Source: Baffinella frigidus
Lineage: Eukaryota; Cryptophyceae; Cryptomonadales; Baffinellaceae
Length of the DNA stretch: 26,563 bases
NCBI GenBank assembly: GCA_026770585.1
Contig: MU648078.1
Span: 1 to 26,563, forward strand
Direction: 5' to 3'
A program made the translations under genes and the position numbers. The notes under the pieces are model-generated. The model searched no databases, was not told where the DNA came from, and was given only the letters and a program-made list of their open reading frames with translations. Within the stretch, counting starts at the first letter, position 1. Every line of letters begins with the position of its first letter. Below, one piece after another: positions 2,934-25,757 of this stretch.

Positions 2934-3018
2934 ACGCAAGCACCTATTCAACGCAAGCACCTATTCAACGCAAGCACCTATTCAACGCAAGCACCTATTC
3001 AACGCAAGCACCTACTCA
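2934..3018 (+). repeat. 17-bp minisatellite, 5 copies, ending in a minus-strand stop
   Basis: The unit ACGCAAGCACCTATTCA repeats five times. The last unit (3002-3018) has one change, and its final TCA is the reverse complement of the TGA that ends the TRAF-type zinc-finger frame on the minus strand. The array therefore begins exactly at that gene's stop codon. Confidence 0.93.
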
Positions 3019-3489
3019 ATCCATGGACGTGGTGTCCATGGCCTTGGTAGATGTGGTGTCCACGGTCTTGGTGGTCTCACACGCGTCGCTACAACCTCCC
3101 GCCTTCGCGGGAGGTTGGAACCACCCGCCTTCGCGGCGTAGGAGTTCCAGAGCGAATTCACTGCGATTTATCGTGGAGCGGCAGCCATTGCCCCAGTAGG
3201 GGCATTGGTGCTCTTCCTCACCACACACCTTCAGGTGAGCTACCATGTCGCGCCCCTTGAGGAGGCGCGTGCAGCCAGAGTCCTTGAACCAACACTCGCG
3301 CTCAGATTCGTTGCACACCTCGAGGTGTTTGGCCAGTTGGATATCCGTGTAGAGGCAGATGTTACCACACAAACCCTCGCATGCGTTCGGGCACGGTTGA
3401 AAGACCAGGCGTTTGGAGGTGCAGCCAGAGCACTCGTTCTCCTGGGGGCAGGGGGTGTCGTGGATCAGTCCAGCACATTCGACAAACTG
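3016..3489 (-). pseudogene. TRAF-type zinc-finger frame without a start codon
   Basis: On the minus strand an open frame runs from just after a TGA at 3490-3492 to a TGA at 3016-3018. It contains evenly spaced Cys and His in the TRAF zinc-finger pattern: CPNACEGLC...HLEVC, then CWFKDSGC...HLKVC, then a partial CPYWGNGC. A further Cys cluster (CPQENECSGC) lies upstream. TRAF and SIAH proteins use such fingers for partner binding beside an E3-ligase RING. There is no ATG before the fingers. An upstream frame (3830-3465) overlaps this one by about 25 nt in another register. Possible readings are a decayed gene, a one-base assembly error, or an exon: a pyrimidine-rich tract ending in CAG lies just upstream of the Cys cluster. 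The C-terminal 35 residues are Thr/Asp/Lys low complexity. Confidence 0.6.
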
Positions 3490-3530
3490 TCAATGGGACG
3501 TGTGTGAGGCTCTGGCGGGCGCCCGTTGAC

Positions 3531-3672
3531 GGGTGCTTGGCGGGTGCTTGGCGGGTGCTTGGCGGGTGCTTGGCGGGTGCTTGGCGGGTGCTTGGCGGGT
3601 GCTTGGCGGTGCTTGGCGGGTGCTTGGCGGGTGCTTGGCGGGAGTTTGGCGGGTGCTTGGTGGGCGCTTGGT
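3531..3672. repeat. 11-bp minisatellite, about 13 copies
   Basis: The unit GGGTGCTTGGC repeats about thirteen times, with one 10-bp copy at 3608-3617 and variant copies at the right end. Because 11 is not a multiple of 3, each copy change shifts any frame through it. On the minus strand all three frames stay open and code Pro/Ser/Lys-rich repeats (HPPSTRQAPAK). Confidence 0.95.
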
Positions 3673-6544: not shown

Positions 6545-6648
6545 GTACATCTTCTGTCCGTAACCCGTTACAGTATCCGCTTTTTGTATTTCAGGTACAC
6601 ATCAAAAGACGTGGCACGAACGGCGGTCTCTAGGCGGGTCTGTCCGTG

Positions 6649-8166
6649 ATGACTATAGACCGGTCGTTTATTGAGAACTTCAAAGCGATATCACCCGAAG
6701 CATTCGATACTCGGCCTCCTGAGAATGTCCCGGTGGTCTTCATAGACTGACAATTGAAGCTGCAATGCCCAGAAGGCATATACGACTGGAACCAGTTTGT
6801 AGTGTGTCTCTACCAACGTATGATCGATCGGTACCTGGCAATGGACGGTGTTAAAACGGTTATCCTGGGGTTTGATGACAGCACGAACAGTCCCTATGCA
6901 AAGGCTGCAACACAAGCCAAGCGACGGTCGCGTTCGGAATTGATGGAATGGCACGAGCTCATGCCACTACCCCAAAACATTCCGGCAAATTACGGGACTC
7001 TCTTGTTCAACCGGAACTTTAAAACGCGGGTCATCAAATACATCATCGAACAAGTGACCCTCAACTCCAACGTCAATGCCGACCAACGTATCATCATCGA
7101 TTATATGCAGGCCCCCTACGTCGCAGTGGGGATCGGCTCAGGGCTGCAGGGCACTCACGTGGGTAATGGTGGAATCCCTGAGAGTGCTCTGGAATTCGAG
7201 ATCGCGTGTCCGCTTGGGGAGTGTGACGTCAAATGGGTACGTTATGTTGGAATGGGGGATCTCATCTTGGACGCGGTGGACTCGGACTATGTCATAATCG
7301 CACTCGCGACGATTGAGAGGCTCAAACGTGCAGCGCCTCGCATCTTCGTGAAACGGCTTCTCCTGGAGCCCGGGAATGCCGCATTGGCAGTTGCAGGGGA
7401 CGACGGTGAGGGCGCCAAGAAGACTGGTGTTAAGAAGCGCAAGGGTGGTATGTTCACCGTTCCGGACAGCAATGCCAACAAGGAAAATGTGAACCCAAAC
7501 AACAATGCTCCCGTCGTGAAGAAGCCCCGGGTTTACGAGTATGCAGACGCCGGGGTGATCGTTGACGCTTTGCGTGGCACACTCAGCAAGCGTACACCGG
7601 ACGCGCTAAAGCCTCACATGATGCGTATCTTGGCTCATCTGGTCGCACTCTGTGGGTGTGACTTCACTCGTGGTGTAAAGTGGTTCAATGCCACCTCTGC
7701 CTTCAAAAACGCTGGGCTCTTGTGGCCTGGTCTATGTGCAGCTGCGACCGTGGACAACGAGACGGGTGTCGTCGTCATGGACCCGCGTTTGATAGCGGAG
7801 CGTGTCATCGGTGTTCTTTGGAAGGAAGTTCAGTTTAAAAAGCTGTGCGACAACCCTGCGATGAAACATGCCGACTTCGAAACTCTCTTCAAGGAGCTGT
7901 CTACCAATACGACGATTAGTGCGTTCAGGCGCGATAGGTTGATATCTCCGATGGAACTGTGTTGTTTGGTACGCAGTTCAAACTGGTGCTGTTTCTACTG
8001 GTCTGACCCCGAACATACGCCATGTTCGTTGACAGGCGGGGAATATGGCTTCACGCGTACCAGGGCTGGAGGTGCCGTTCAGTTTGACGATAAGAGGCCT
8101 CTCCCGTCTAAGATTGAGAGGAAGGCACTTGATGCGATGCCCCATACCTGGCTTACACCGTCGTAG
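6649..8166 (+). CDS. FEN1/XPG-like 5' nuclease with one in-frame TGA, 505 codons
   Basis: This is a flap-endonuclease-like (PIN-fold) protein, a family that cuts 5' flaps or RNA/DNA ends using a cluster of acidic residues. ATG 6649 opens a frame whose codon 33 is the Asp of VVFID, matching FEN1 Asp34 in place and context. Codon 34 is TGA (6748-6750), and the same frame continues to 8166. Beyond it lie GFDD (codons 74-77, like FEN1 Asp86), GMGDLILDAVDSDYVIIAL (about 202-220, like the FEN1 Glu158/160 and Asp179/181 region) and LCGCDF (Asp at 338, like FEN1 Asp233). An insert around codons 255-296 is Lys/Asn rich and may be a nuclear signal. Without codons 1-33 the enzyme would lack one metal ligand, so the TGA is either read through, an error, or a recent inactivation. 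Poxvirus G5-type and other NCLDV nucleases are the likely relatives. Confidence 0.8.
6748..6753 (+). other. In-frame TGA in a near-leaky context (TGA CAA TTG)
   Basis: The stop is followed by CAA TTG, matching five of six bases of the CARYYA context known to promote stop-codon readthrough in plant viruses. Other genes here end in TGA, and Trp is coded by TGG, so a general code change is unlikely. No selenocysteine tRNA is visible in the window. Confidence 0.5.
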
Positions 8167-8197: not shown

Positions 8198-8328
8198 TTT
8201 GCCACAACCTTGGTTGTGGCTTTGTGGATTTGCCACAACCTTGGTTGTGGCTTTGTGGCTTTGCCACAACCTTGGTTGTGGCTTTGTGGCTTTGCCACAA
8301 CCTTGGTTGTGGCTTTGTGGCTTTGTGG
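8198..8328. repeat. 31-bp hairpin repeat, 4 copies
   Basis: GCCACAACC-TT-GGTTGTGGC, a perfect 9-bp inverted repeat, recurs at 8201, 8232, 8263 and 8294, separated by CTTTGTGGATT-like spacers. It fills the gap between the nuclease stop (8166) and the stop of the convergent homeodomain gene (8400). Plausible roles are transcript-end formation or a replication/recombination site. It is not a CRISPR array: the spacers are near-identical. Confidence 0.9.
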
Positions 8329-8399: not shown

Positions 8400-8960
8400 T
8401 TACAAACTTTTCGACACCTGCGTGTAGCTCAGGGGTGTACTACCCTTCTTAGAATAGCGCTTGCGGTGGTTGTTGCAAAAATGGCTCACTTGAGTGGCTG
8501 TGATTCCGATGATCTTTGCGATCGCCCTCCTATCTTCGAGGGTCGTATAGGGCTCCGGAAAACGTGCGATCCACTCCCTCAGCTTCCTAGTGTATTCTAC
8601 ATGGCGGCCGTCCTTATTCTTGAAAGGATTGAACGCTCCCGTGGCCGTGTGTTTGCGTTTGACGGGCTTGTCTTCTGCAGCAAATTCCATCTTGGGTGGG
8701 GATTCCATCTTGGGTGGGGACCCAAGATGGGTGTACGGCGGGGTGTACAGTGGGGTGTACGAGCAAGATTCCACGTGGTGGGATGTGTGTACCAGCCAAA
8801 TTTCTTTGGAAATTGCGTCACATTCACCGAGACATGGTGTGTCGAGAGGTTCTACGAGAATGATATGGTGTCCATCGCTTGTGGGTCCTACCAACTTGTC
8901 GCCGTGGTCAGGAGTTGGAACGATCATGCCATCGGTAATGTCCCAGGACCCGCACACCAT
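8400..8960 (-). CDS. TALE/KN-like homeodomain protein, 186 aa
   Basis: The C-terminal third (about residues 112-172) reads as a homeodomain of the TALE type. It has W130, the PEPYTTLEDR segment matching the PYP loop and helix 2 start of TALE proteins, IAKIIGITATQV as helix 2 and turn, and recognition helix VSHFCNNHRKR. The invariant Asn51 and Arg53 equivalents (N164, R166) are present; Trp48 and Phe49 are replaced by F161 and C162. A KRKH stretch near residue 101 may be a nuclear signal. The first 95 residues are unassigned and include a duplicated SPPKME motif coded by an 18-bp repeat. It is probably a sequence-specific DNA-binding regulator. AATAAA follows 21 nt after the stop. An overlapping plus-strand frame (8397-9149) is open, but its product shows no recognisable domain. 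Confidence 0.8.
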   Translation of the reverse strand: MVCGSWDITDGMIVPTPDHGDKLVGPTSDGHHIILVEPLDTPCLGECDAISKEIWLVHTSHHVESCSYTPLYTPPYTHLGSPPKMESPPKMEFAAEDKPVKRKHTATGAFNPFKNKDGRHVEYTRKLREWIARFPEPYTTLEDRRAIAKIIGITATQVSHFCNNHRKRYSKKGSTPLSYTQVSKSL

Positions 8961-9222: not shown

Positions 9223-9873
9223 ATGTGTAAGACCGATAGGGAGAGTGATGCAGAGAGTATGTGTAGCGACGAGGTTGTTGTTGGGTATGACGATGAGGAT
9301 GTGAATACGAGCCCGGATGGTGTCGACTCGGACAAGCCTGTGCATATGGGTTCCTCGAACCCCCTTTCTATGATCGCCCAGGGTCGGATGGAGGCGTTGG
9401 AAAACCTTGTACACACCAAGAACGACGAGATTAAGCGCCTTCGTGAATCGGCTGGCGAGAGGATTACCTGTGTGAGTAACGAACTGGCGCGTGTTAGTCA
9501 GTCTTTTGTTGAACACAAGGAACTGGCTTTCCACGAGATGCAACGTGAACGTGTGGGTGTAGCTGCAGGCCTGGAGGCTCGCAAAACGGCGTCAAACAAA
9601 GTAGTTGACATTGCTCGTAGTATCATTGCCACCGGTGACGCCAAGATCGCCGAACTGGAGTGTGTGGTCGACGAACAGCAGCGTTTGATCCAACACCTAG
9701 AGGACGATCTGTGCGGTTTGCGCGCGTCTCGGAAGAAGTCACGCGCCGATAGGAATACCACAGAAACCAGCGGGGATGCGGCTCGTAGTGGAGAGACTGT
9801 TCGTAGTGGGGGGGTGGCTCGTAGTGGTGGTTCTCGTAAGCGCCGCCGTATGTCCCAGCATGTTCGTCGCTGA
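9223..9873 (+). CDS. Coiled-coil protein with Arg/Ser-rich basic tail, 216 aa
   Basis: ATG-started frame. The first 45 residues are acidic (Asp/Glu/Ser). Residues 50-165 are long, charged helices with heptad spacing typical of a coiled coil. The tail holds three copies of (A/V)RSG(G/E) followed by SRKRRR, likely a nuclear or nucleic-acid-binding signal. No membrane segment. The acidic-coil-basic layout resembles the first two thirds of the protein at 18478, which adds a RING-like end, but I see no clear sequence match. Probably a nuclear scaffold or regulator. Confidence 0.75.
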   Translation: MCKTDRESDAESMCSDEVVVGYDDEDVNTSPDGVDSDKPVHMGSSNPLSMIAQGRMEALENLVHTKNDEIKRLRESAGERITCVSNELARVSQSFVEHKELAFHEMQRERVGVAAGLEARKTASNKVVDIARSIIATGDAKIAELECVVDEQQRLIQHLEDDLCGLRASRKKSRADRNTTETSGDAARSGETVRSGGVARSGGSRKRRRMSQHVRR

Positions 9874-15804: not shown

Positions 15805-15827
15805 GTCTTGCCACTGTGCATCCTCGC

Positions 15828-16634
15828 ATGACGTCTACTACCCACGGCGTTGGTTACGCACCGGTCGTTTCCAACGAACCCACCGCGATTCCCTGGCCTG
15901 CGGGTGTCGTGCGTTCTACGGACACCAGCAATGGTGTGACCGAGTTGACTCCCAGCGAGATTTTGTCAAGCATCATCGATACCATCAAAACGCTCAACCT
16001 CGTCACGACCTCGTTGGAAGACCCCGCCGCCATCTCGCCCGCCATACTCGTATTCATGGAACTGACGAACCGGCAGTCGGCCCCCCTTCTCGCTCCGCCG
16101 ATGCCCACTTTTGCCCCGTCGATGCCTCTTCACGCTCTGTCGCAACACCTTCACGTTTCCCCGGCACCGCTCCGCGTCCCATCGGTGCTTCTTCACACTC
16201 CTCCGGTGTCCATGCCCGTTCTGCCGACGCCTCTTCCCACTCCGTCTACTACACCGCTTCGGACGAAGCGCGCACGTGAAGAAGACCTTGTCAACCCGTC
16301 CAACCCGCCTGAGACTGTTGCTAGGATCAAGGCGGAGAAGACGTTCCAGTGTCCGGTTTGCGCCCAGATGTTCTCCCAGAGGGCAAACATGAAAGGGCAC
16401 ATCGAATCGATCCACAACAAGGTCAAGTACCAGTGCAGCATCTGTGACGAGCATCTCTCCAGCAAGACCAACCTCAACCACCACATGAAGAAGACCCACG
16501 CAGCCGCCGGCGTCTACTGTGCCTTCAAGTATTGCACTACATGCGACGTGCACATGCGGGGGGACCTTGCCCGGCACACGCGCAGCCCCAAGCACCAGCG
16601 CAAGCTCGCCGCTCTTGCAGCATCTTCGTTGTAA
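15828..16634 (+). CDS. C2H2 zinc-finger protein, 268 aa
   Basis: I chose ATG 15828; a GTG lies four codons earlier. Residues 1-80 are a mixed N-terminal domain with a helical stretch (SEILSSIIDTIKTL). Residues 85-145 are a Pro-rich linker with repeated (S/T)xPxPL motifs. KTKRARE-like basic residues near 147 may be a nuclear signal. Three zinc fingers follow: C175/C178/H191/H196, C203/C206/H219/H224, and C236/C239/H250/H256 with a longer final His spacing. It is probably a DNA- or RNA-binding regulator. AATAAA lies 150 nt after the stop, beyond a G-rich repeat. The gene meets the 7-TM gene tail to tail. Confidence 0.88.
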   Translation: MTSTTHGVGYAPVVSNEPTAIPWPAGVVRSTDTSNGVTELTPSEILSSIIDTIKTLNLVTTSLEDPAAISPAILVFMELTNRQSAPLLAPPMPTFAPSMPLHALSQHLHVSPAPLRVPSVLLHTPPVSMPVLPTPLPTPSTTPLRTKRAREEDLVNPSNPPETVARIKAEKTFQCPVCAQMFSQRANMKGHIESIHNKVKYQCSICDEHLSSKTNLNHHMKKTHAAAGVYCAFKYCTTCDVHMRGDLARHTRSPKHQRKLAALAASSL

Positions 16635-17841: not shown

Positions 17842-17909
17842 GCCCCTGTAGCTCAGTTGGTTTAGAGTGCAAGCCTTTTAAGCTTGTGGTCGTGGGTTCC
17901 GGGTGGGGC
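17842..17909 (+). tRNA. Degenerate tRNA-Lys(TTT)-like gene
   Basis: The 5' half is intact: acceptor GCCCCTG, perfect A-box TAGCTCAGTTGG (17849-17860), D stem, and a five-pair anticodon stem CAAGC/GCTTG with loop CTTTTAA (anticodon TTT, 17877-17879). The T arm is broken: GTGGGTTC has no pairing 3' half, and only the outer acceptor bases pair (GGGGC). It is about 5 nt too short. It resembles the intact copy at 17958-18029, so it is probably a decayed duplicate. Confidence 0.6.
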
Positions 17910-17935: not shown

Positions 17936-17957
17936 TGGCAAAAAGAAAATAGGTATA

Positions 17958-18029
17958 CCCCCGGGCAGTCTTGATCTGCCGTCCACTCAGTTAAAAGCTG
18001 AGCGCTCTACCAACTGAGCTGCGGGGGCA
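17958..18029 (-). tRNA. tRNA-Lys(TTT)
   Basis: A full 72-nt cloverleaf: acceptor GCCCCCG/CGGGGGT (seven pairs, one G-U), D arm GCTC...GAGC with A-box-like CAGCTCAGTTGG, anticodon stem CTCAG/CTGAG with loop CTTTTAA (anticodon TTT), and T stem GGCAG/CTGCC with loop ATCAAGA. The only odd feature is A in place of the first T of the T loop. A T-rich terminator follows. It may supply Lys-AAA decoding. Confidence 0.88.
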
Positions 18030-18211: not shown

Positions 18212-18334
18212 TCGTTTTATATCCCAGATCTCGTTTTATATCTTTAGATTTCGTTTTATATTTTTAGACTTCGTTTTATATTTTTAGATATCGTTTTATA
18301 TTTTTAGATATCGTTTTATATTTTTAGATATCGT
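18212..18334. repeat. 20-bp tandem repeat with a TATAAAA in each unit, about 6 copies
   Basis: The unit TCGTTTTATATTTTTAGATA begins at 18212, 18231, 18251, 18271, 18291 and 18311, with a partial unit at 18331. On the minus strand each unit reads TATAAAACGA. The array lies 144 bp before ATG 18478, facing away from it, and no gene start is visible to its left except the tRNA. It could be an array of TBP sites or an AT-rich unwinding element. Confidence 0.92.
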
Positions 18335-18350
18335 GTTAACTTTGTGTCAA

Positions 18351-20266: not shown

Positions 20267-21595
20267 ATGGCACGCAAAGGGGTATCTTCAATGACCATTG
20301 CATGGAACGACTTCATGTCGGCTGCCAAGGAAGATTGTAGGATGTTTTCATTTACGACCTGCGCCAAGAAGACCGCCATCGCATGCAAGGTCGAGCAAGA
20401 CTGGCGTTCGTGGGTCGCCTCTGCAAAGCCTACCAAGGCAGTAGCGATGAAGAACGCCAAGACCCTGGCTACCTGGGTCGTCAATATGCAGGGGCCTCCT
20501 TCAATCCTCCTCATGTTGTTGTCCGAGTGGGAAGTCCCTGCGGATTTCACGATGCATGGAAACGCCACACTCCTCTTTCGGGCGATCGCCAAGAATGACC
20601 CTGGTAGCATTGACATCCTGCTAGACGGCCACGGGGATAACAAGGCTAGCCCGACGACGACTCGGCAGCTCTCGACACAAGAAGCATTCAAGAACCCTCT
20701 TCTCATGGCCATGCGGATGACTCCCAGTGTCCACTACGACGATGCCACTCATGCGGTTGTCGACCGAACCGGTTACGTGGTCAGAAAGTTGTTGCATGCC
20801 GGTGCCAACTTCATCGCTTCCGACCCCGAAGAAGAGGATCTCATCGGCCAACAGATCGTACAAGAACTCGCCGCGTGCGGCAACGTCGAGGTCGCCGAAA
20901 TGCTAATTGAAAACGCGGGTGTTGACATCTCCCGCATCGACTTCAACATGACGTACAACCGTATCTCGTACGCGACAAGGTTCGACGTCGCGCACCAGGC
21001 AAGTTGGCAGACCGTCGAGCAGGACGCAACGCCGCTTCTGTGTGTGCGGAAACATGCCACAACAATGCCAGACGGTACACACGCCGCTGCCTGCGAGCAC
21101 ATCTACACGGACGGTCCGTGTGTTGCGAAAAACTGCAACATGGGCTTGGTCAAGTTGCTTGTCGCCAACGGCGCCAACCCTCTCTCCGAAGGGATTCTAC
21201 ACCGCGAACAGTTCCCGGGTGGGACGGGTATCCACCTCGAGCTCTGTTACCACGCGACTACCGAGCTTGTCCTGGCCATGTACAAGCGCGCCTATGCCGC
21301 ACGGGTCTTCTGCTGCTGTGTTCTACAGCGGGCCATCGACAAAAAGAACAGCACGGGGGGTGTCAAGAAGGAAACTGGGGTTGCTACACGTAGGTCTGTT
21401 TCGTTTCCGCCGGAGGTACTTCAACTGATCATCAAGTTTGCGGGAATCGGAGAAACCGTCGTCTCCGATCCCAACACCCCGTGGGTCCCCTCGATGGCAC
21501 CGCGGTGCACTGGCACTCACCATCCCGTTTCAGACCCCTGGGCCAACGAGTATGTCCTCGTGGATGCACTTCTCGGGAAGAGAGAACTTGCGTAG
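20267..21595 (+). CDS. Ankyrin protein with F-box-like C-terminal motif, 442 aa
   Basis: ATG 20267. Residues 1-75 are a basic, Ala-rich helical start. Ankyrin-like units are visible near residues 99-121 (ATLLFRAIAKNDPGSIDILL), 170-185 (VVRKLLHAGANF), 203-218 and 291-306 (NMGLVKLLVANGANPL), with long inserts between them. Near the end SFPPEVLQLIIKFAG (379-393) resembles the F-box or PRANC start seen in poxvirus ankyrin proteins, which link bound targets to cullin-1 ubiquitin ligases. A Cys-rich FCCCV lies at 348-352. G+C-rich third positions match the nuclease and C2H2 genes. The TAG stop lies inside an 18-bp repeat. It is probably a substrate receptor acting on host proteins; the F-box call needs a profile test. 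Confidence 0.83.
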   Translation: MARKGVSSMTIAWNDFMSAAKEDCRMFSFTTCAKKTAIACKVEQDWRSWVASAKPTKAVAMKNAKTLATWVVNMQGPPSILLMLLSEWEVPADFTMHGNATLLFRAIAKNDPGSIDILLDGHGDNKASPTTTRQLSTQEAFKNPLLMAMRMTPSVHYDDATHAVVDRTGYVVRKLLHAGANFIASDPEEEDLIGQQIVQELAACGNVEVAEMLIENAGVDISRIDFNMTYNRISYATRFDVAHQASWQTVEQDATPLLCVRKHATTMPDGTHAAACEHIYTDGPCVAKNCNMGLVKLLVANGANPLSEGILHREQFPGGTGIHLELCYHATTELVLAMYKRAYAARVFCCCVLQRAIDKKNSTGGVKKETGVATRRSVSFPPEVLQLIIKFAGIGETVVSDPNTPWVPSMAPRCTGTHHPVSDPWANEYVLVDALLGKRELA

Positions 21596-21689: not shown

Positions 21690-21729
21690 GGGGGTTGCAG
21701 AGGCACGGAAGCAGATGTTGAGCCGGTTC

Positions 21730-22023
21730 TTACAAAATCATTATTATTAGTGGACTCACCAGCACGACCGACACCAGCAACGACACCATCGCTCGTATGA
21801 ACGCTGTCGCTATTGTACCAATGCGCGACAACCTCATTGTCGTGCTACTGTCGCTGACGTACATGTCTTCGTTAAATATAACCTCGGTCGCAATAAACAC
21901 GGGTAGTACATACAACCCACTGCTGTACATACAAGTGGGGTGTATGTACAGCAGTAGGGTGTATGTACAGCAGTGGGGTGCATGTACAGCAGTGGGTGTG
22001 CCAGGTGCTCCGATGGGTGGCAT
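21730..22023 (-). CDS. Small membrane protein, 2 hydrophobic segments, 97 aa
   Basis: ATG 22023 is the first ATG of the frame; a GTG lies two codons upstream. The N-terminal half overlaps a 19-bp repeat and is Cys/Tyr/His/Pro rich, so a later start near MYSSGLYVLPV is possible. Two hydrophobic segments follow, about LYVLPVFIATEVIF and AFIRAMVSLLVSVVLVSPLIIMIL, the second reaching the C-terminus. It looks like a small membrane protein, but its first third may be chance coding of the repeat. No family recognised. Confidence 0.5.
   Translation of the reverse strand: MPPIGAPGTPTAVHAPHCCTYTLLLYIHPTCMYSSGLYVLPVFIATEVIFNEDMYVSDSSTTMRLSRIGTIATAFIRAMVSLLVSVVLVSPLIIMIL
21916..21994. repeat. 19-bp tandem repeat with an inverted copy
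   Basis: GGGTGTATGTACAGCAGTA repeats at 21938, 21957 and 21976. A 17-bp inverted copy, CCCACTGCTGTACATAC, lies at 21916-21932 and pairs perfectly with 21961-21977, so a long hairpin can form. Confidence 0.88.
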
Positions 22024-22132: not shown

Positions 22133-22324
22133 ATGGATTCGCACGCGCAGCCCCCGCACGCGCAGCCCCCGCACGCGCAGCCCCCGCACGCGCAGCCCCG
22201 AATGGGCACAGTGAAAATGCTAATATGTTGGAACATTGCCATCGCCATATGTGTGGTCGTACTTAAAAAACGACACATATTCTACACGGGAATCTACGGA
22301 GATTATACAACGAAGCCACTATAA
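22133..22324 (+). CDS. Small single-pass membrane protein with HAQPP repeats, 63 aa
   Basis: I chose ATG 22133; a GTG lies four codons earlier. After MDS come four HAQPP units coded by a 15-bp repeat (22142-22201), then one hydrophobic segment (about residues 28-47, MLICWNIAIAICVVVL), then KKRH and a short Tyr/Thr-rich tail. The basic residues after the segment suggest that the C-terminus is cytoplasmic and the repeats are outside or luminal. Repeat number can change in frame. It is short, but repeat, membrane segment and charge pattern fit a real gene. Confidence 0.6.
   Translation: MDSHAQPPHAQPPHAQPPHAQPRMGTVKMLICWNIAIAICVVVLKKRHIFYTGIYGDYTTKPL
22142..22201 (+). repeat. 15-bp in-frame repeat, 4 copies
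   Basis: The unit CACGCGCAGCCCCCG codes HAQPP. It repeats at 22142, 22157, 22172 and 22187, the last with one base changed. Confidence 0.95.
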
Positions 22325-22343
22325 TTACGCCACTACAACTAAG

Positions 22344-22441
22344 CCAACACACCTAATCCAACACACCCAAGCCAACACACCCAAGCCAACACACCTAAGC
22401 CAACACACCTAAGCCAACACACCTAAGCCAACACACCTAAG
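22344..22441 (+). repeat. 14-bp minisatellite, 7 copies
   Basis: The unit CCAACACACCTAAG repeats seven times with C/T and G/T variants. It starts 20 bp after the stop at 22324 and ends 26 bp before ATG 22467, filling the gap between two small genes. Confidence 0.95.
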
Positions 22442-22466
22442 CCATTCCCCCTGTGTCTACAGCAAC

Positions 22467-22712
22467 ATGCCCACACAAACAAATCTGTGCTCCATGCTGG
22501 TAGACATGAAACATGATATTAGTGTAAGCCGTAAGGATGTTCACATGGACAAGAACGATTTGTGTGATATTGTGGACACGCGTATCGCACAGATCATAAA
22601 ACAAATCATATCGGCTCCGTACTGTACGAACTTCTCCTTCGAAATCGACCAGCCCGCTGAGTTGGACACGTTTGACCGCGCAGCACTCTACCAGATGGAG
22701 AGTGACATGTGA
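22467..22712 (+). CDS. Unassigned small acidic protein, 81 aa
   Basis: ATG-started frame after the 14-bp array. The product is soluble and helical, Asp/Met rich, with a likely amphipathic helix (DTRIAQIIKQIISAPY, about residues 37-52) and an acidic end. No known motif. No TATA box is obvious. It could be a small regulatory or structural protein; chance coding is possible at this length. Confidence 0.5.
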   Translation: MPTQTNLCSMLVDMKHDISVSRKDVHMDKNDLCDIVDTRIAQIIKQIISAPYCTNFSFEIDQPAELDTFDRAALYQMESDM

Positions 22713-22744
22713 TGATAAAGTAACTGGTTTGTATACTATGGTAC

Positions 22745-22842
22745 CCCTTAAGGGCCCAACTGGTGATTAATCGCCCGTGGAAGCCCTAGGCAGGTCCTAG
22801 GACCCTACGATAGGGTGTATGGACCTACTGGTCACTTAAGGG
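22745..22842. promoter_or_regulatory. Intergenic cluster of palindromes
   Basis: CCCTTAAGGG (22745-22754), GGTCCTAGGACC (22793-22804) and CCCTA-CGA-TAGGG (22803-22815) are inverted repeats, and CTTAAGGG recurs near 22835. The flanks (CCCTTAAGGGCCCA on the left, CACTTAAGGGA on the right) are partly inverted copies of each other. The cluster lies between the stops of the convergent genes at 22712 and 22886, so a transcript-end or replication role is as likely as a promoter. Confidence 0.6.
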
Positions 22843-22885
22843 ATACGTATATTACATCCATATTCATATTCATATATGGAACACG

Positions 22886-24553
22886 TTAACGTATTTCGTG
22901 AACCGCCTTCCGTGACGACTCTTCATCTTGCATACATATTTCCGCAACTTTGTCGACCGCGTAGGTGTACTTAGTCTTAAAATTTCCGACAGCTATCAAC
23001 ACTTGATGGCTTAGGACCCCACAGAAATTTTTCCATATATGGGGCCAAATGTCCACGTTTTGGTATGACGCAATATAAAGCTGTAGGAACTTCAACCACG
23101 AGAGGTCTTTTGAGTCCGTGTATGAGAAATCCGTGAAACATTCCGCGCGGAATGCTATTAGTTCGGTGAATGGGGTGACATGAACTGTTAGTAAGTGTAA
23201 GAACTCGATGATCGCTGAAGCCTGTGGCTTGCATAGCCGGTTTGCCAACATATTCGACGCGATTTCAGAATCGTTTAGAAAGTGCTTTCGTATCGCATCG
23301 GATGGGTCTGCAAAGTTCATCTGTGCAACCAGTACATATCCCAAAAGCTTGCTCTTGTGTGAGATTGCGGGTGGTACACGCGCCCTCAGAGACCATCCTT
23401 GTAGGCTATCCTCTTGCATCTGCGACATTTGCGATGCAGCGTTCGTGTTTTGTGTTTGTTGTCCATGTGGTAGACCGTTGGAACCGATTGAATCTACACC
23501 ATCGCTATTTGTTTCAACTGTCGCACCTAGCGTGGTCTCATCTTGGAACGTCCCAACGCGGTATCGTAGACGTACACGTCCACTTGCATTGTGTTGTTTT
23601 GTATTCTCCCGCTGGGACCACTTTAGCATGCTTTCTTTTGTGTCCAGGAAGAAGATACACTTATCGTGGAAATCTGGTGCTATAATGAGGTTCTGCATGA
23701 ACCAGGTAAGATCATGTGAAAATTGTGCCTGGGTAAATCGAGTATCCGCAATCGAAGCGGTGAAGATATTTGCAGCTTCGTGTGCATTGGACGTTGCCGG
23801 CATTGTTTCAACAAGAAACGCTTTAATCGCGACAAGGCTGCTTATGTTCTTGATATTTGTCAGCAAGTACAGCTTCAGTGTGTCCGTTGTAGAGAGGTTA
23901 TCTACGCCAATCTGTTCCAGTGTGCCAAATACAAACTTGATGGTGGGTAGATCGTGTCCAAAGTCACTGTCGACCGTAAACAGATACTCTTGCACTTGCG
24001 CTTCTGTAAACGAAAGAATCTGCAGTATCTTCTGCCACTCCGAGTACTCTCCGTAAACATTCTCAACCCGTCGTTCAACTCGCAATAGTCCTTGTTGCGA
24101 TGCCTCGTAATTCAGTCCTTCGCAGATACTTGTCGTGTCCGCGAGTTTCAAACTGGATACGATGCTACGTTTGAAGCTGTTAATAACGTCCCGTGGCAAC
24201 ATGTTACTCGTTTGAGTGAATGTAAGGTATGCGTTTATGATTGAGTTGAAGTTTTGTTCCTCGACGAGCTTGGTTGATTGCATGAATAGAGAAGTGAGTT
24301 CTGCTGTTGCATTGAAGCCATCGTCCATGTAACGACTTTGTTCCTTGATTGCATCGACGTCTAGCTGTTGTGCAAATCGTTGACTTGCGTGTGATAAATG
24401 GCGACCTGTGTGTGTCTGTTCGGAACCACCCCGCACAAGTAGAGCGTGAGACCCTACACTTTGTATGTGGCCATTTTGAGAAACGGGGAAGTCAAATATT
24501 GTGTCATTCGTTCGAGTGGGTGGTGGTATTCCATTGGCTGTGATTTGTTCCAT
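22886..24553 (-). CDS. Large unassigned soluble protein, 555 aa
   Basis: I chose ATG 24553 (MEQITANG). An earlier ATG at 24592 lies only 12 bp beyond a minus-strand TATAAT and would probably precede the transcript start. Residues 1-60 are Pro/Thr/His rich. Residues 65-320 are mostly helical, with repeated hydrophobic helices (FNSIINAYLTFTQTSNML, TLKLYLLTNIKNISSLVAIKAF). A Gln/Asn-rich linker (about 355-385) separates a second helical domain containing SWLKFLQLYIASYQNVDIWPHIWKNF. No membrane segment, zinc site or enzymatic motif is visible. Two-domain helical build, size and lack of enzyme motifs would fit a virion structural protein, but this is inference. It is divergently transcribed from the gene at 24664. 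Confidence 0.8.
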   Translation of the reverse strand: MEQITANGIPPPTRTNDTIFDFPVSQNGHIQSVGSHALLVRGGSEQTHTGRHLSHASQRFAQQLDVDAIKEQSRYMDDGFNATAELTSLFMQSTKLVEEQNFNSIINAYLTFTQTSNMLPRDVINSFKRSIVSSLKLADTTSICEGLNYEASQQGLLRVERRVENVYGEYSEWQKILQILSFTEAQVQEYLFTVDSDFGHDLPTIKFVFGTLEQIGVDNLSTTDTLKLYLLTNIKNISSLVAIKAFLVETMPATSNAHEAANIFTASIADTRFTQAQFSHDLTWFMQNLIIAPDFHDKCIFFLDTKESMLKWSQRENTKQHNASGRVRLRYRVGTFQDETTLGATVETNSDGVDSIGSNGLPHGQQTQNTNAASQMSQMQEDSLQGWSLRARVPPAISHKSKLLGYVLVAQMNFADPSDAIRKHFLNDSEIASNMLANRLCKPQASAIIEFLHLLTVHVTPFTELIAFRAECFTDFSYTDSKDLSWLKFLQLYIASYQNVDIWPHIWKNFCGVLSHQVLIAVGNFKTKYTYAVDKVAEICMQDEESSRKAVHEIR

Positions 24554-24603
24554 CTGGGCTCCTCTGTTACTTGTAAGTTGTGTATATACCATGTATACCG
24601 TTG

Positions 24604-25106: not shown

Positions 25107-25757
25107 ATGATCCCAAATGTTCGATCGTATCTTCAATACACACGGCCTAGTCATGTAACTCTTAAGGTGATGCAGTGTGTGTTGTTTGTGTTCTTCAACC
25201 GCGCACAACGTGTCATGCGCAACGGGTCTGTCATAGTCAACAGTTTGGACTTGCGTGGTACTGCCATGTTGCCGCTGGGTGTCAGCGTGGCGTTGCATAT
25301 AGCATTACTGTGTCCAGGGCTCGTAATCCCTACTCGCCGTGGACGAGTTCCTGTCTTGTGTAGTCTGCTACATGTCATATTGGTGTATATGTTGGCAGCG
25401 CTGCTTGTCACGTTTGCACTGGATCGGTATACGACAACTGCAAGCTTCATCGCCGTTCTTCTCGCTTCTCACTTGTGTTTGGTTGTGCGTCCTCTTGACA
25501 ACGACCTAGTCCCTGCACAGATATTATCATATGGTCGTTTCATGGCCGTGGCGTCGTATGTAATACCTGTTGTCTCGTGGATACTACTTCCTGTGCTACG
25601 GGTACATGAACTTGAAGCAATCGCGCTACTCTACATACCGGATGCACTTTGTTTTGTGTTTGCCTATACAATTGAATTTGTTGCAATTTTGTTGAATGTG
25701 GCAACCGTCGCTGGGTGTTCTATATGTGGTATCGGGGCTGGTAGGAGTACGGATTAA
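25107..25757 (+). CDS. Multi-pass membrane protein, 5-6 TM, 216 aa
   Basis: ATG 25107. The first 50 residues are basic and amphipathic. Hydrophobic segments lie at about 55-75, 83-104, 110-128, 145-165 and 170-208 (possibly two). SYGRFMAVASYV (141-152) before a TM ending in ILLP, followed by a helix with AYTIEF, parallels SYSRTIVVSYV, VVP and AYNYE in the 464-residue protein at 10038. The two may share a membrane core. The C-terminus is Cys/Gly rich and short. A 29-bp direct repeat begins three bases after the stop. Family not recognised. Confidence 0.8.
   Translation: MIPNVRSYLQYTRPSHVTLKVMQCVLFVFFNRAQRVMRNGSVIVNSLDLRGTAMLPLGVSVALHIALLCPGLVIPTRRGRVPVLCSLLHVILVYMLAALLVTFALDRYTTTASFIAVLLASHLCLVVRPLDNDLVPAQILSYGRFMAVASYVIPVVSWILLPVLRVHELEAIALLYIPDALCFVFAYTIEFVAILLNVATVAGCSICGIGAGRSTD

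What the first reader, a model, noticed from the sequence alone, without database searches (positions are those of the whole stretch)
8400..8960. TALE/KN-like homeodomain in an apparently viral gene set
The C-terminus of the minus-strand protein reads as a homeodomain with the PYP-type loop, a helix 2 of the TALE kind and Asn51/Arg53 equivalents in the recognition helix. Trp48 and Phe49 are replaced by Phe and Cys, which is unusual. Homeodomains are rare in viruses, so it may be a captured host regulator that binds viral or host promoters. TALE proteins prefer TGAC/TGACA-like cores, and GTTGACTAAA elements occur before several genes in this window, so the protein could bind them. That link is speculation.
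Basis: partly seen in the sequence, partly recalled or inferred. Interest (0 to 1): 0.75.

Follow-up and report, generated by a model that had tools for sequence, protein, structure and literature searches.

The report
Odd homeodomain gene in virus-like contig
A short contig from an alga's genome assembly, packed with genes in the manner of a giant virus, carries a small gene for a homeodomain, the DNA-binding module best known from developmental regulators, and cousins of that gene lie both in other virus-like contigs and in host-like contigs of the same assembly.

Summary
ORF 8400-8960 (-), 186 aa, ends in a homeodomain (about aa 117-172): all 24 PDB sequence hits are homeobox proteins (best PBX1, E 3.9e-4); a six-member profile reaches PKNOX1 at 5.4e-7. 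It is KN-like but not strictly TALE: two extra residues before position 48, not three, and F-C, not W-F, at 48-49, in six of six members compared. The window is the whole contig C1294 of a 382 Mb assembly of a plastid-bearing alga. It is gene-dense, with ankyrin, TRAF-type and C2H2 domains; sister contigs add a serpin, MORN and RING. No viral hallmark was shown; those searches were uninformative. Relatives lie in three other dense contigs and four sparse, host-like ones; two of the four are disrupted, one of them a weak match, E 0.032. Homeobox-annotated proteins are already recorded for giant viruses, so the class is not new; the variant and its spread over virus-like and host-like DNA are the news. 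Most likely a virus-carried transcription regulator.

The parts
8400..8960 (-). 186-aa open frame: N-terminal region of low model confidence plus C-terminal homeodomain
8445..8612 (-). homeodomain, about aa 117-172 (three helices)
8454..8498 (-). helix 3 (recognition helix), aa 155-169, with F48 C49 N51 R53 by homeodomain numbering
   Evidence: numbering (recalled) carried over from the PBX1 alignment
8684..8720 (.). 18-bp direct repeat, 2.1 copies, inside the homeodomain ORF, before the part that codes for the domain
8198..8325 (.). 31-bp tandem repeat, 4.1 copies, with a 9-bp-stem hairpin, between two convergent genes
6754..8166 (+). conserved 470-aa frame, a family found on six other contigs; function not identified. 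DNA similarity to relatives begins at 6648, and an in-frame TGA at 6748-6750 interrupts the front of the gene
9223..9873 (+). 216-aa protein with weak coiled-coil-family matches, all below cut-off; a 29% identical relative lies on C1308
10038..11432 (+). 464-aa protein with hydrophobic stretches (by eye, membrane-like); relative on C1308 in the same order
3016..3372 (-). TRAF-type zinc finger protein
   Evidence: PF02176, E 6e-9, above cut-off
15816..16634 (+). C2H2 zinc finger protein
   Evidence: PF00096, E 6.4e-7, above cut-off
20267..21595 (+). ankyrin repeat protein
   Evidence: PF00023, E 1.6e-6, above cut-off
22467..22712 (+). 81-aa frame; by eye its sequence recurs at the end of the 263-aa frame in L022 (C433), beside the same next gene
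   Evidence: DNA match to C1162 at 22549-22706
22886..24592 (-). 568-aa conserved protein, no known family; relatives on six contigs, three of which also carry the 470-aa family close by
25107..25757 (+). 216-aa protein, 72% identical relative on C1162 in the same order
22742..22845 (.). about 104-bp dispersed repeat; copies of 100 bp or more at 77-88% identity in both dense and sparse contigs

Best explanation
The gene codes for a small sequence-specific DNA-binding protein, a homeodomain of a local, KN-like but not strictly TALE variety, carried on a giant-virus-like element of an alga. SHOWN: the homeodomain by sequence and predicted fold, retained N51 and R53, the changed W48-F49 to F-C, the +2 extension, relatives in three other dense and four sparse contigs, and a short repeat shared by both kinds of contig. 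INFERRED: the dense contigs are DNA of related large DNA viruses, wholly or partly endogenous; the gene passed between host and virus long ago; the product enters the nucleus or viral factory and sets transcription by placing helix 3 in the major groove through N51 and R53, possibly as an early regulator. The last point rests on analogy: a putative homeobox protein of mimivirus is classed as an immediate early gene (PMC11998528, passage).
For: Homeodomain. Family in the same assembly. One homeodomain match on each of the dense contigs C1294, C1073, C1065 and C993. Dense coding: 0.69 of the window lies in frames of 150 aa or more; 11 of the 17 stretches fetched around relatives reach 0.68-0.85, against 0.19-0.39 for three host antenna-gene loci and 0 for the C413 and C384 loci. 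Virus-like domains. Recurrent neighbours: the 470-aa and 568-aa families lie close together on C1341, C1132 and C1069. On C1073 the homeodomain gene and the 470-aa family are about 7 kb apart. Homeobox-annotated proteins of Barrevirus, Harvfovirus and mimivirus appear among weak fold matches.
Against: No capsid, VLTF3 or DNA polymerase B match anywhere in the assembly; uninformative, but no support. Seven IMG/VR scans found no relative. Matches of the window's own copy are modest: Pfam below cut-off, not among the three matches of the KN family search of the assembly, no Foldseek E <= 0.001. The W48-F49 core pair is changed. C1308 keeps the neighbours without the homeodomain. A neighbour is interrupted by an in-frame stop, so the contig may be a decaying relic. 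Four relatives are in host-like contigs, so a host gene family fits too. The tree of six homeodomains is unresolved, supports 30-48.
Confidence: 0.55

Rival explanations
1. The dense contigs are not viral but gene-dense host-associated mobile or accessory DNA (a giant transposon, plasmid-like or supernumerary element), and the homeodomain is one member of a host gene family that such DNA has copied.
For: Relatives in sparse, host-like contigs C378, C331, C413 and, weakly, C384. A 104-bp repeat common to both kinds of contig. No viral hallmark found. A 568-aa family member sits in the 330-kb contig C433, where nearby frames match frames of host-type stretches.
Against: Mix of ankyrins, serpin, TRAF/RING fingers and MORN in long uninterrupted frames resembles large DNA viruses (recalled). 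No transposase or integrase model matched among the 26 window ORFs scanned at E 0.1 or in the 21 families found for 48 sister ORFs at E 0.001.
Confidence: 0.25
2. The domain is a homeodomain-like helix-turn-helix of another class (transposase or CENP-B type, or SANT-like) and not a regulator.
For: CENP-B_N appears at E 0.029 for the isolated window domain. REST corepressor SANT domains appear low in the profile hits.
Against: Homeobox_KN is the best Pfam family for the window domain, and all six members match it at E<=0.5, the best at 1.7e-5. The first 19 of 41 profile hits are homeobox proteins. No catalytic domain was matched in the ORF.
Confidence: 0.08
3. The gene is already a relic: a remnant in an endogenous element without present function.
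For: The neighbouring 470-aa gene has an in-frame stop near its start, its C1073 relative falls into two frames, and two sparse-contig homeodomain copies are disrupted.
Against: The window's homeodomain frame and those on C1073, C1065, C993, C378 and C331 are open over the match, although pairs share only 16-23 of 43 residues, which suggests selection held them.
Confidence: 0.12

Closest known systems
Homeobox-annotated proteins of giant viruses: mimivirus R749 (Q5UP03), Barrevirus A0A3G4ZQS0, Harvfovirus A0A3G5A082
   Same: Proteins annotated as homeobox from large DNA viruses; listed at ranks 9, 3 and 5 of 74 fold matches.
   Different: Matches are weak (E 0.2-0.54, prob 0.16-0.69); I did not have their sequences, so shared descent, loop length and F-C pair were not compared.
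TALE / KN homeodomains (PBX, PKNOX, MEIS; algal ORO, SAM, KNOX/BEL)
   Same: Nearest by sequence profile (PKNOX1 E 5.4e-7) and by Pfam KN; MEIS1 heads the structural list (Z 8.1, rmsd 2.0, 54 aligned), tied with non-TALE homeodomains.
   Different: Extension +2 instead of +3; F-C instead of W-F at 48-49; PYP loop motif (recalled) in only two of six members. ORO/SAM sequences were not compared.
Giant endogenous viral elements of algae
   Same: Dense short genes, ankyrins and many minisatellites in an algal assembly.
   Different: No shown hallmark genes; no relative in seven IMG/VR scans.

Membership tests
Homeodomain | three-helix homeodomain fold | tested here: met
   helices; 50 of 50 listed rows homeodomain proteins by title, none at E <= 0.001; best Z 8.1, 48 of 50 listed titles name a homeodomain or POU protein, two (9yzt, 4qtr) do not say; the tool warns that Z near 8 is common for helical folds
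Homeodomain | N51 and R53 in helix 3 | tested here: met
   window has both; family R53 six of six, N51 five of six (C331 has K)
Homeodomain | W48-F49 core pair | tested here: not met
   F-C in six of six
TALE superclass | three extra residues between helices 1 and 2 | tested here: not met
   L16-to-48 distance 34 in six of six; PBX1 and PKNOX1 35; ordinary homeodomain 32 (recalled)
Pfam Homeobox_KN (PF05920) | score above curated cut-off 24 bits | tested here: not met
   window 15.6 bits whole, 17.8 domain alone; C1073 and C1065 relatives are above it (25.3, 25.2), C993 below (18.8)
Nucleocytoviricota | major capsid protein, VLTF3, family B DNA polymerase | tested here: inconclusive
   no match, but controls rang nowhere for the first two, and the polymerase search missed host enzymes that must exist
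Giant-virus homeobox proteins | homology to mimivirus R749 or the Barrevirus and Harvfovirus proteins | tested here: inconclusive
   weak fold matches only; sequences not compared

The most novel reading that the evidence does not exclude
A lineage of algal large DNA viruses has taken up and diversified a host KN-type homeodomain and uses it to take over the host's life-cycle or ploidy switch, the process that TALE homeodomain proteins control in algae; the gene has also gone back into the host genome, where copies decay.
Probability: 0.1. Interest if true: 0.85.

Novelty: new variant of a known kind. Interest (0 to 1): 0.5.

Why it matters
Homeodomain proteins of the TALE class switch life-cycle phases in green and brown algae (passages of abstract and introduction of Arun et al. 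2019, PMC6368402). A related domain carried by virus-like DNA in an alga, with kin in host-like contigs of the same assembly, is a concrete candidate for gene traffic that touches developmental control. It also adds a well-delimited variant (F-C pair, +2 extension) to the homeobox-annotated viral proteins.

Tried and rejected
FEN/XRN nuclease for 6754-8166: the motif was recalled, but no Pfam match better than E 0.16, no credible PDB match, and the model is too poor to use (mean pLDDT 42.8; Foldseek best E 3.1). Not claimed.

568-aa protein: no PDB sequence match, no PHROG among the ten proteins scanned, one weak Pfam row, poxvirus Bcl-2-like, E 0.069, below cut-off; unknown.

Hallmark searches of the assembly and COX1: no match, uninformative. 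Host identity: chlorophyll-binding proteins present; rows for the best complete one are named fucoxanthin, ACPI, VCPI and similar antenna proteins, the top row being LHCI-11 of 9vfj with no organism shown. A literature search by assembly size found nothing. Species not determined.

Hairpins behind genes as in mimivirus (recalled rule): mean best stem 5.7 bp behind 24 genes against 5.4 in 300 random windows; 4 of 24 reach 8 bp against 6.3% at random. Two of those four are the same repeat seen from both sides. Rejected as a general rule here.

Direction of transfer from a tree of six homeodomains: unresolved.

Bacterial promoter scan of the region: 0 found against 1.2 expected; terminators 3 against 1.5; not used.

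Print searches for viral homeodomain/homeobox proteins: (search listings). Looked into by passages: PMC12993054 (only its reference list names TALE homeodomains), PMC11998528, PMC4053784, PMC6368402.

Full report
WHAT IS THERE. The window is the whole contig C1294 (26,563 bases) of an assembly of 382 Mb in 1,364 contigs. ORF 8400-8960 on the - strand codes for 186 aa. Its first 110 residues matched no Pfam family at E 0.1 and have low model confidence. Residues 117-172 form a homeodomain: phmmer against the PDB gives 24 sequences at E<=1, all homeobox proteins, best PBX1 at 3.9e-4. Pfam Homeobox_KN is the best family at E 0.015, below cut-off. The predicted model has three helices in the right places. 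The 50 listed Foldseek rows, of 429 at E<=10, are homeodomain proteins by title, with E 0.043-0.22. The structural re-alignment puts Meis1 first at Z 8.1, rmsd 2.0, 54 residues, tied with non-TALE homeodomains; that tool warns that Z near 8 is common for helical folds. The sequence evidence carries the claim.

A FAMILY IN THE SAME ASSEMBLY. The window protein finds five other places at E<=2e-4: C378, C1065, C993, C1073 and C331. The C378 copy as query adds C413 (E 1.4e-6, one stop inside) and C384 (E 0.032, weak), and two hits at E 1 and 3 that I do not count. A profile of six domains (not C413 or C384) reaches PKNOX1 at 5.4e-7, and its first 19 of 41 rows are homeobox proteins. In all six, positions 48-49 are F-C in place of W-F, R53 is kept, and N51 is kept in five. 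The distance from helix-1 L16 to position 48 is 34 in all six, against 35 in PBX1 and PKNOX1 and 32 in an ordinary homeodomain (recalled). The domain is thus KN-like but has two, not three, extra residues, so strict TALE membership fails. Pairwise identity over 43 residues is 16-23, so the copies are old. The window copy is closest to C378 (23 of 43), but the tree is unresolved.

TWO KINDS OF CONTIG. I measured the share of bases in ATG-started frames of 150 aa or more, leaving out frames with N. Window 0.69. Of 17 stretches fetched around relatives, 11 lie at 0.68-0.85 (one of them, on C1073, is nearly half N). Two are intermediate: C1144 0.42 and one C1065 piece 0.41, which is more than half N. 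Four are low: C433 0.11, C378 0.09 and 0, C331 0. Three short antenna-gene loci of the host give 0.19-0.39, and the C413 and C384 loci give 0. The measure includes spurious antisense frames, and the stretches were chosen for their matches, so it describes these stretches only. Homeodomain genes on C1294, C1073, C1065 and C993 lie in dense DNA; those on C378, C331, C413 and C384 in sparse DNA. C413 and C384 are disrupted: the domain of C413 lies in pieces in different frames and C384 keeps a fragment.

IS THE SETTING VIRAL? Window domains above Pfam cut-off: TRAF-type finger, C2H2 fingers, ankyrin. Among 48 ORFs from sister contigs (48 of the 79 listed): ankyrins in 11, alpha/beta hydrolase in 2, and one each of serpin, ephrin-receptor-like repeats, MORN and RING. 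The conserved 470-aa and 568-aa families occur close together on C1341, C1132 and C1069. The order of the 470-aa, 216-aa (9223-9873) and 464-aa genes is kept on C1308, but with 5.8 kb of other frames and no homeodomain between the first two. C1162 keeps the 568-aa gene and the two genes beyond it. This looks like a group of related large DNA viruses or their endogenous remains. Against it: no capsid, VLTF3 or family B polymerase match, though the polymerase search missed host enzymes, so these say nothing; and no relative in seven IMG/VR scans or, for the homeodomain protein, in phage records.

TIE TO THE HOST AND STATE OF DECAY. A repeat of about 104 bp at 22742-22845 recurs in nine of the 22 stretches searched, in five of them over 100 bp or more at 77-88% identity, in both sparse (C378, C413) and dense (C1308, C1065, C993) contigs. 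C433, a 330-kb contig, holds a 568-aa relative and frames that match frames of host-type stretches. So the dense DNA has probably lived with this genome. The gene beside the homeodomain is damaged: similarity to relatives starts at 6648, but an in-frame TGA stands at 6748-6750. The C1073 relative falls into two frames. Open relatives exist. The homeodomain frame itself is open.

THE HOST. It has chlorophyll-binding proteins: nine matches, several of them exon-sized. The best complete one is nearest to antenna proteins with names used for algae with red-type plastids (the reading of the names is recalled). The species is not determined.

HOW IT MOST LIKELY WORKS. Helix 3 with N51 and R53 should contact DNA as in other homeodomains (established knowledge); the F-C change alters the core next to it. 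With a short N-terminal part of low model confidence and no enzyme domain matched, a transcription regulator is the simplest role. A putative homeobox protein of mimivirus is classed as immediate early (passage of PMC11998528), which suggests an early regulator; that step is analogy. TALE proteins control life-cycle phase in algae (PMC6368402, passages), so a virus or element with a related domain could touch that switch; this is speculation.

VERDICT. Real homeodomain, virus-like surroundings, strict TALE membership not met, viral hallmark missing, class already recorded in giant viruses. The interest lies in the variant and in its spread over virus-like and host-like DNA of one alga.

Noticed in passing
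window 17955-18029 (-) and 17842-17898 (+): A tRNA-Lys (TTT) and a second, weaker tRNA-like match on the other strand close by.
   Followed up: no
window, e.g. 2638-2764, 3526-3671, 8198-8325, 18212-18338, 22306-22444: Many minisatellite arrays (42 TRF rows, some overlapping), several between genes.
   Followed up: partly
window 22742-22845: Short dispersed repeat shared by virus-like and host-like contigs, with CCCTTAAG / CTTAAGGG near its ends, as in a miniature transposon (the end motif seen by eye).
   Followed up: partly
window 21712-21899 and L031 2818-3009 (C1065): A 192-column stretch 93% identical between the window and another homeodomain-bearing dense contig, the closest DNA match of the window to any fetched locus.
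   Followed up: no
L033 3671-4558 (C993): A serpin gene (Pfam best E 3.7e-50 among the 48 ORFs; this ORF assigned by eye) on the same dense contig as a homeodomain gene.
   Followed up: no
L024 2277-6887 (C1242): A 1,537-aa cysteine-rich protein, by eye the one with ephrin-receptor-like repeats (best E 1.3e-70 among the 48 ORFs), beside a 568-aa-family relative.
   Followed up: no
L026 1090-2019 (C768): A host antenna protein with what looks by eye like EF-hand motifs in front of the chlorophyll-binding part.
   Followed up: no
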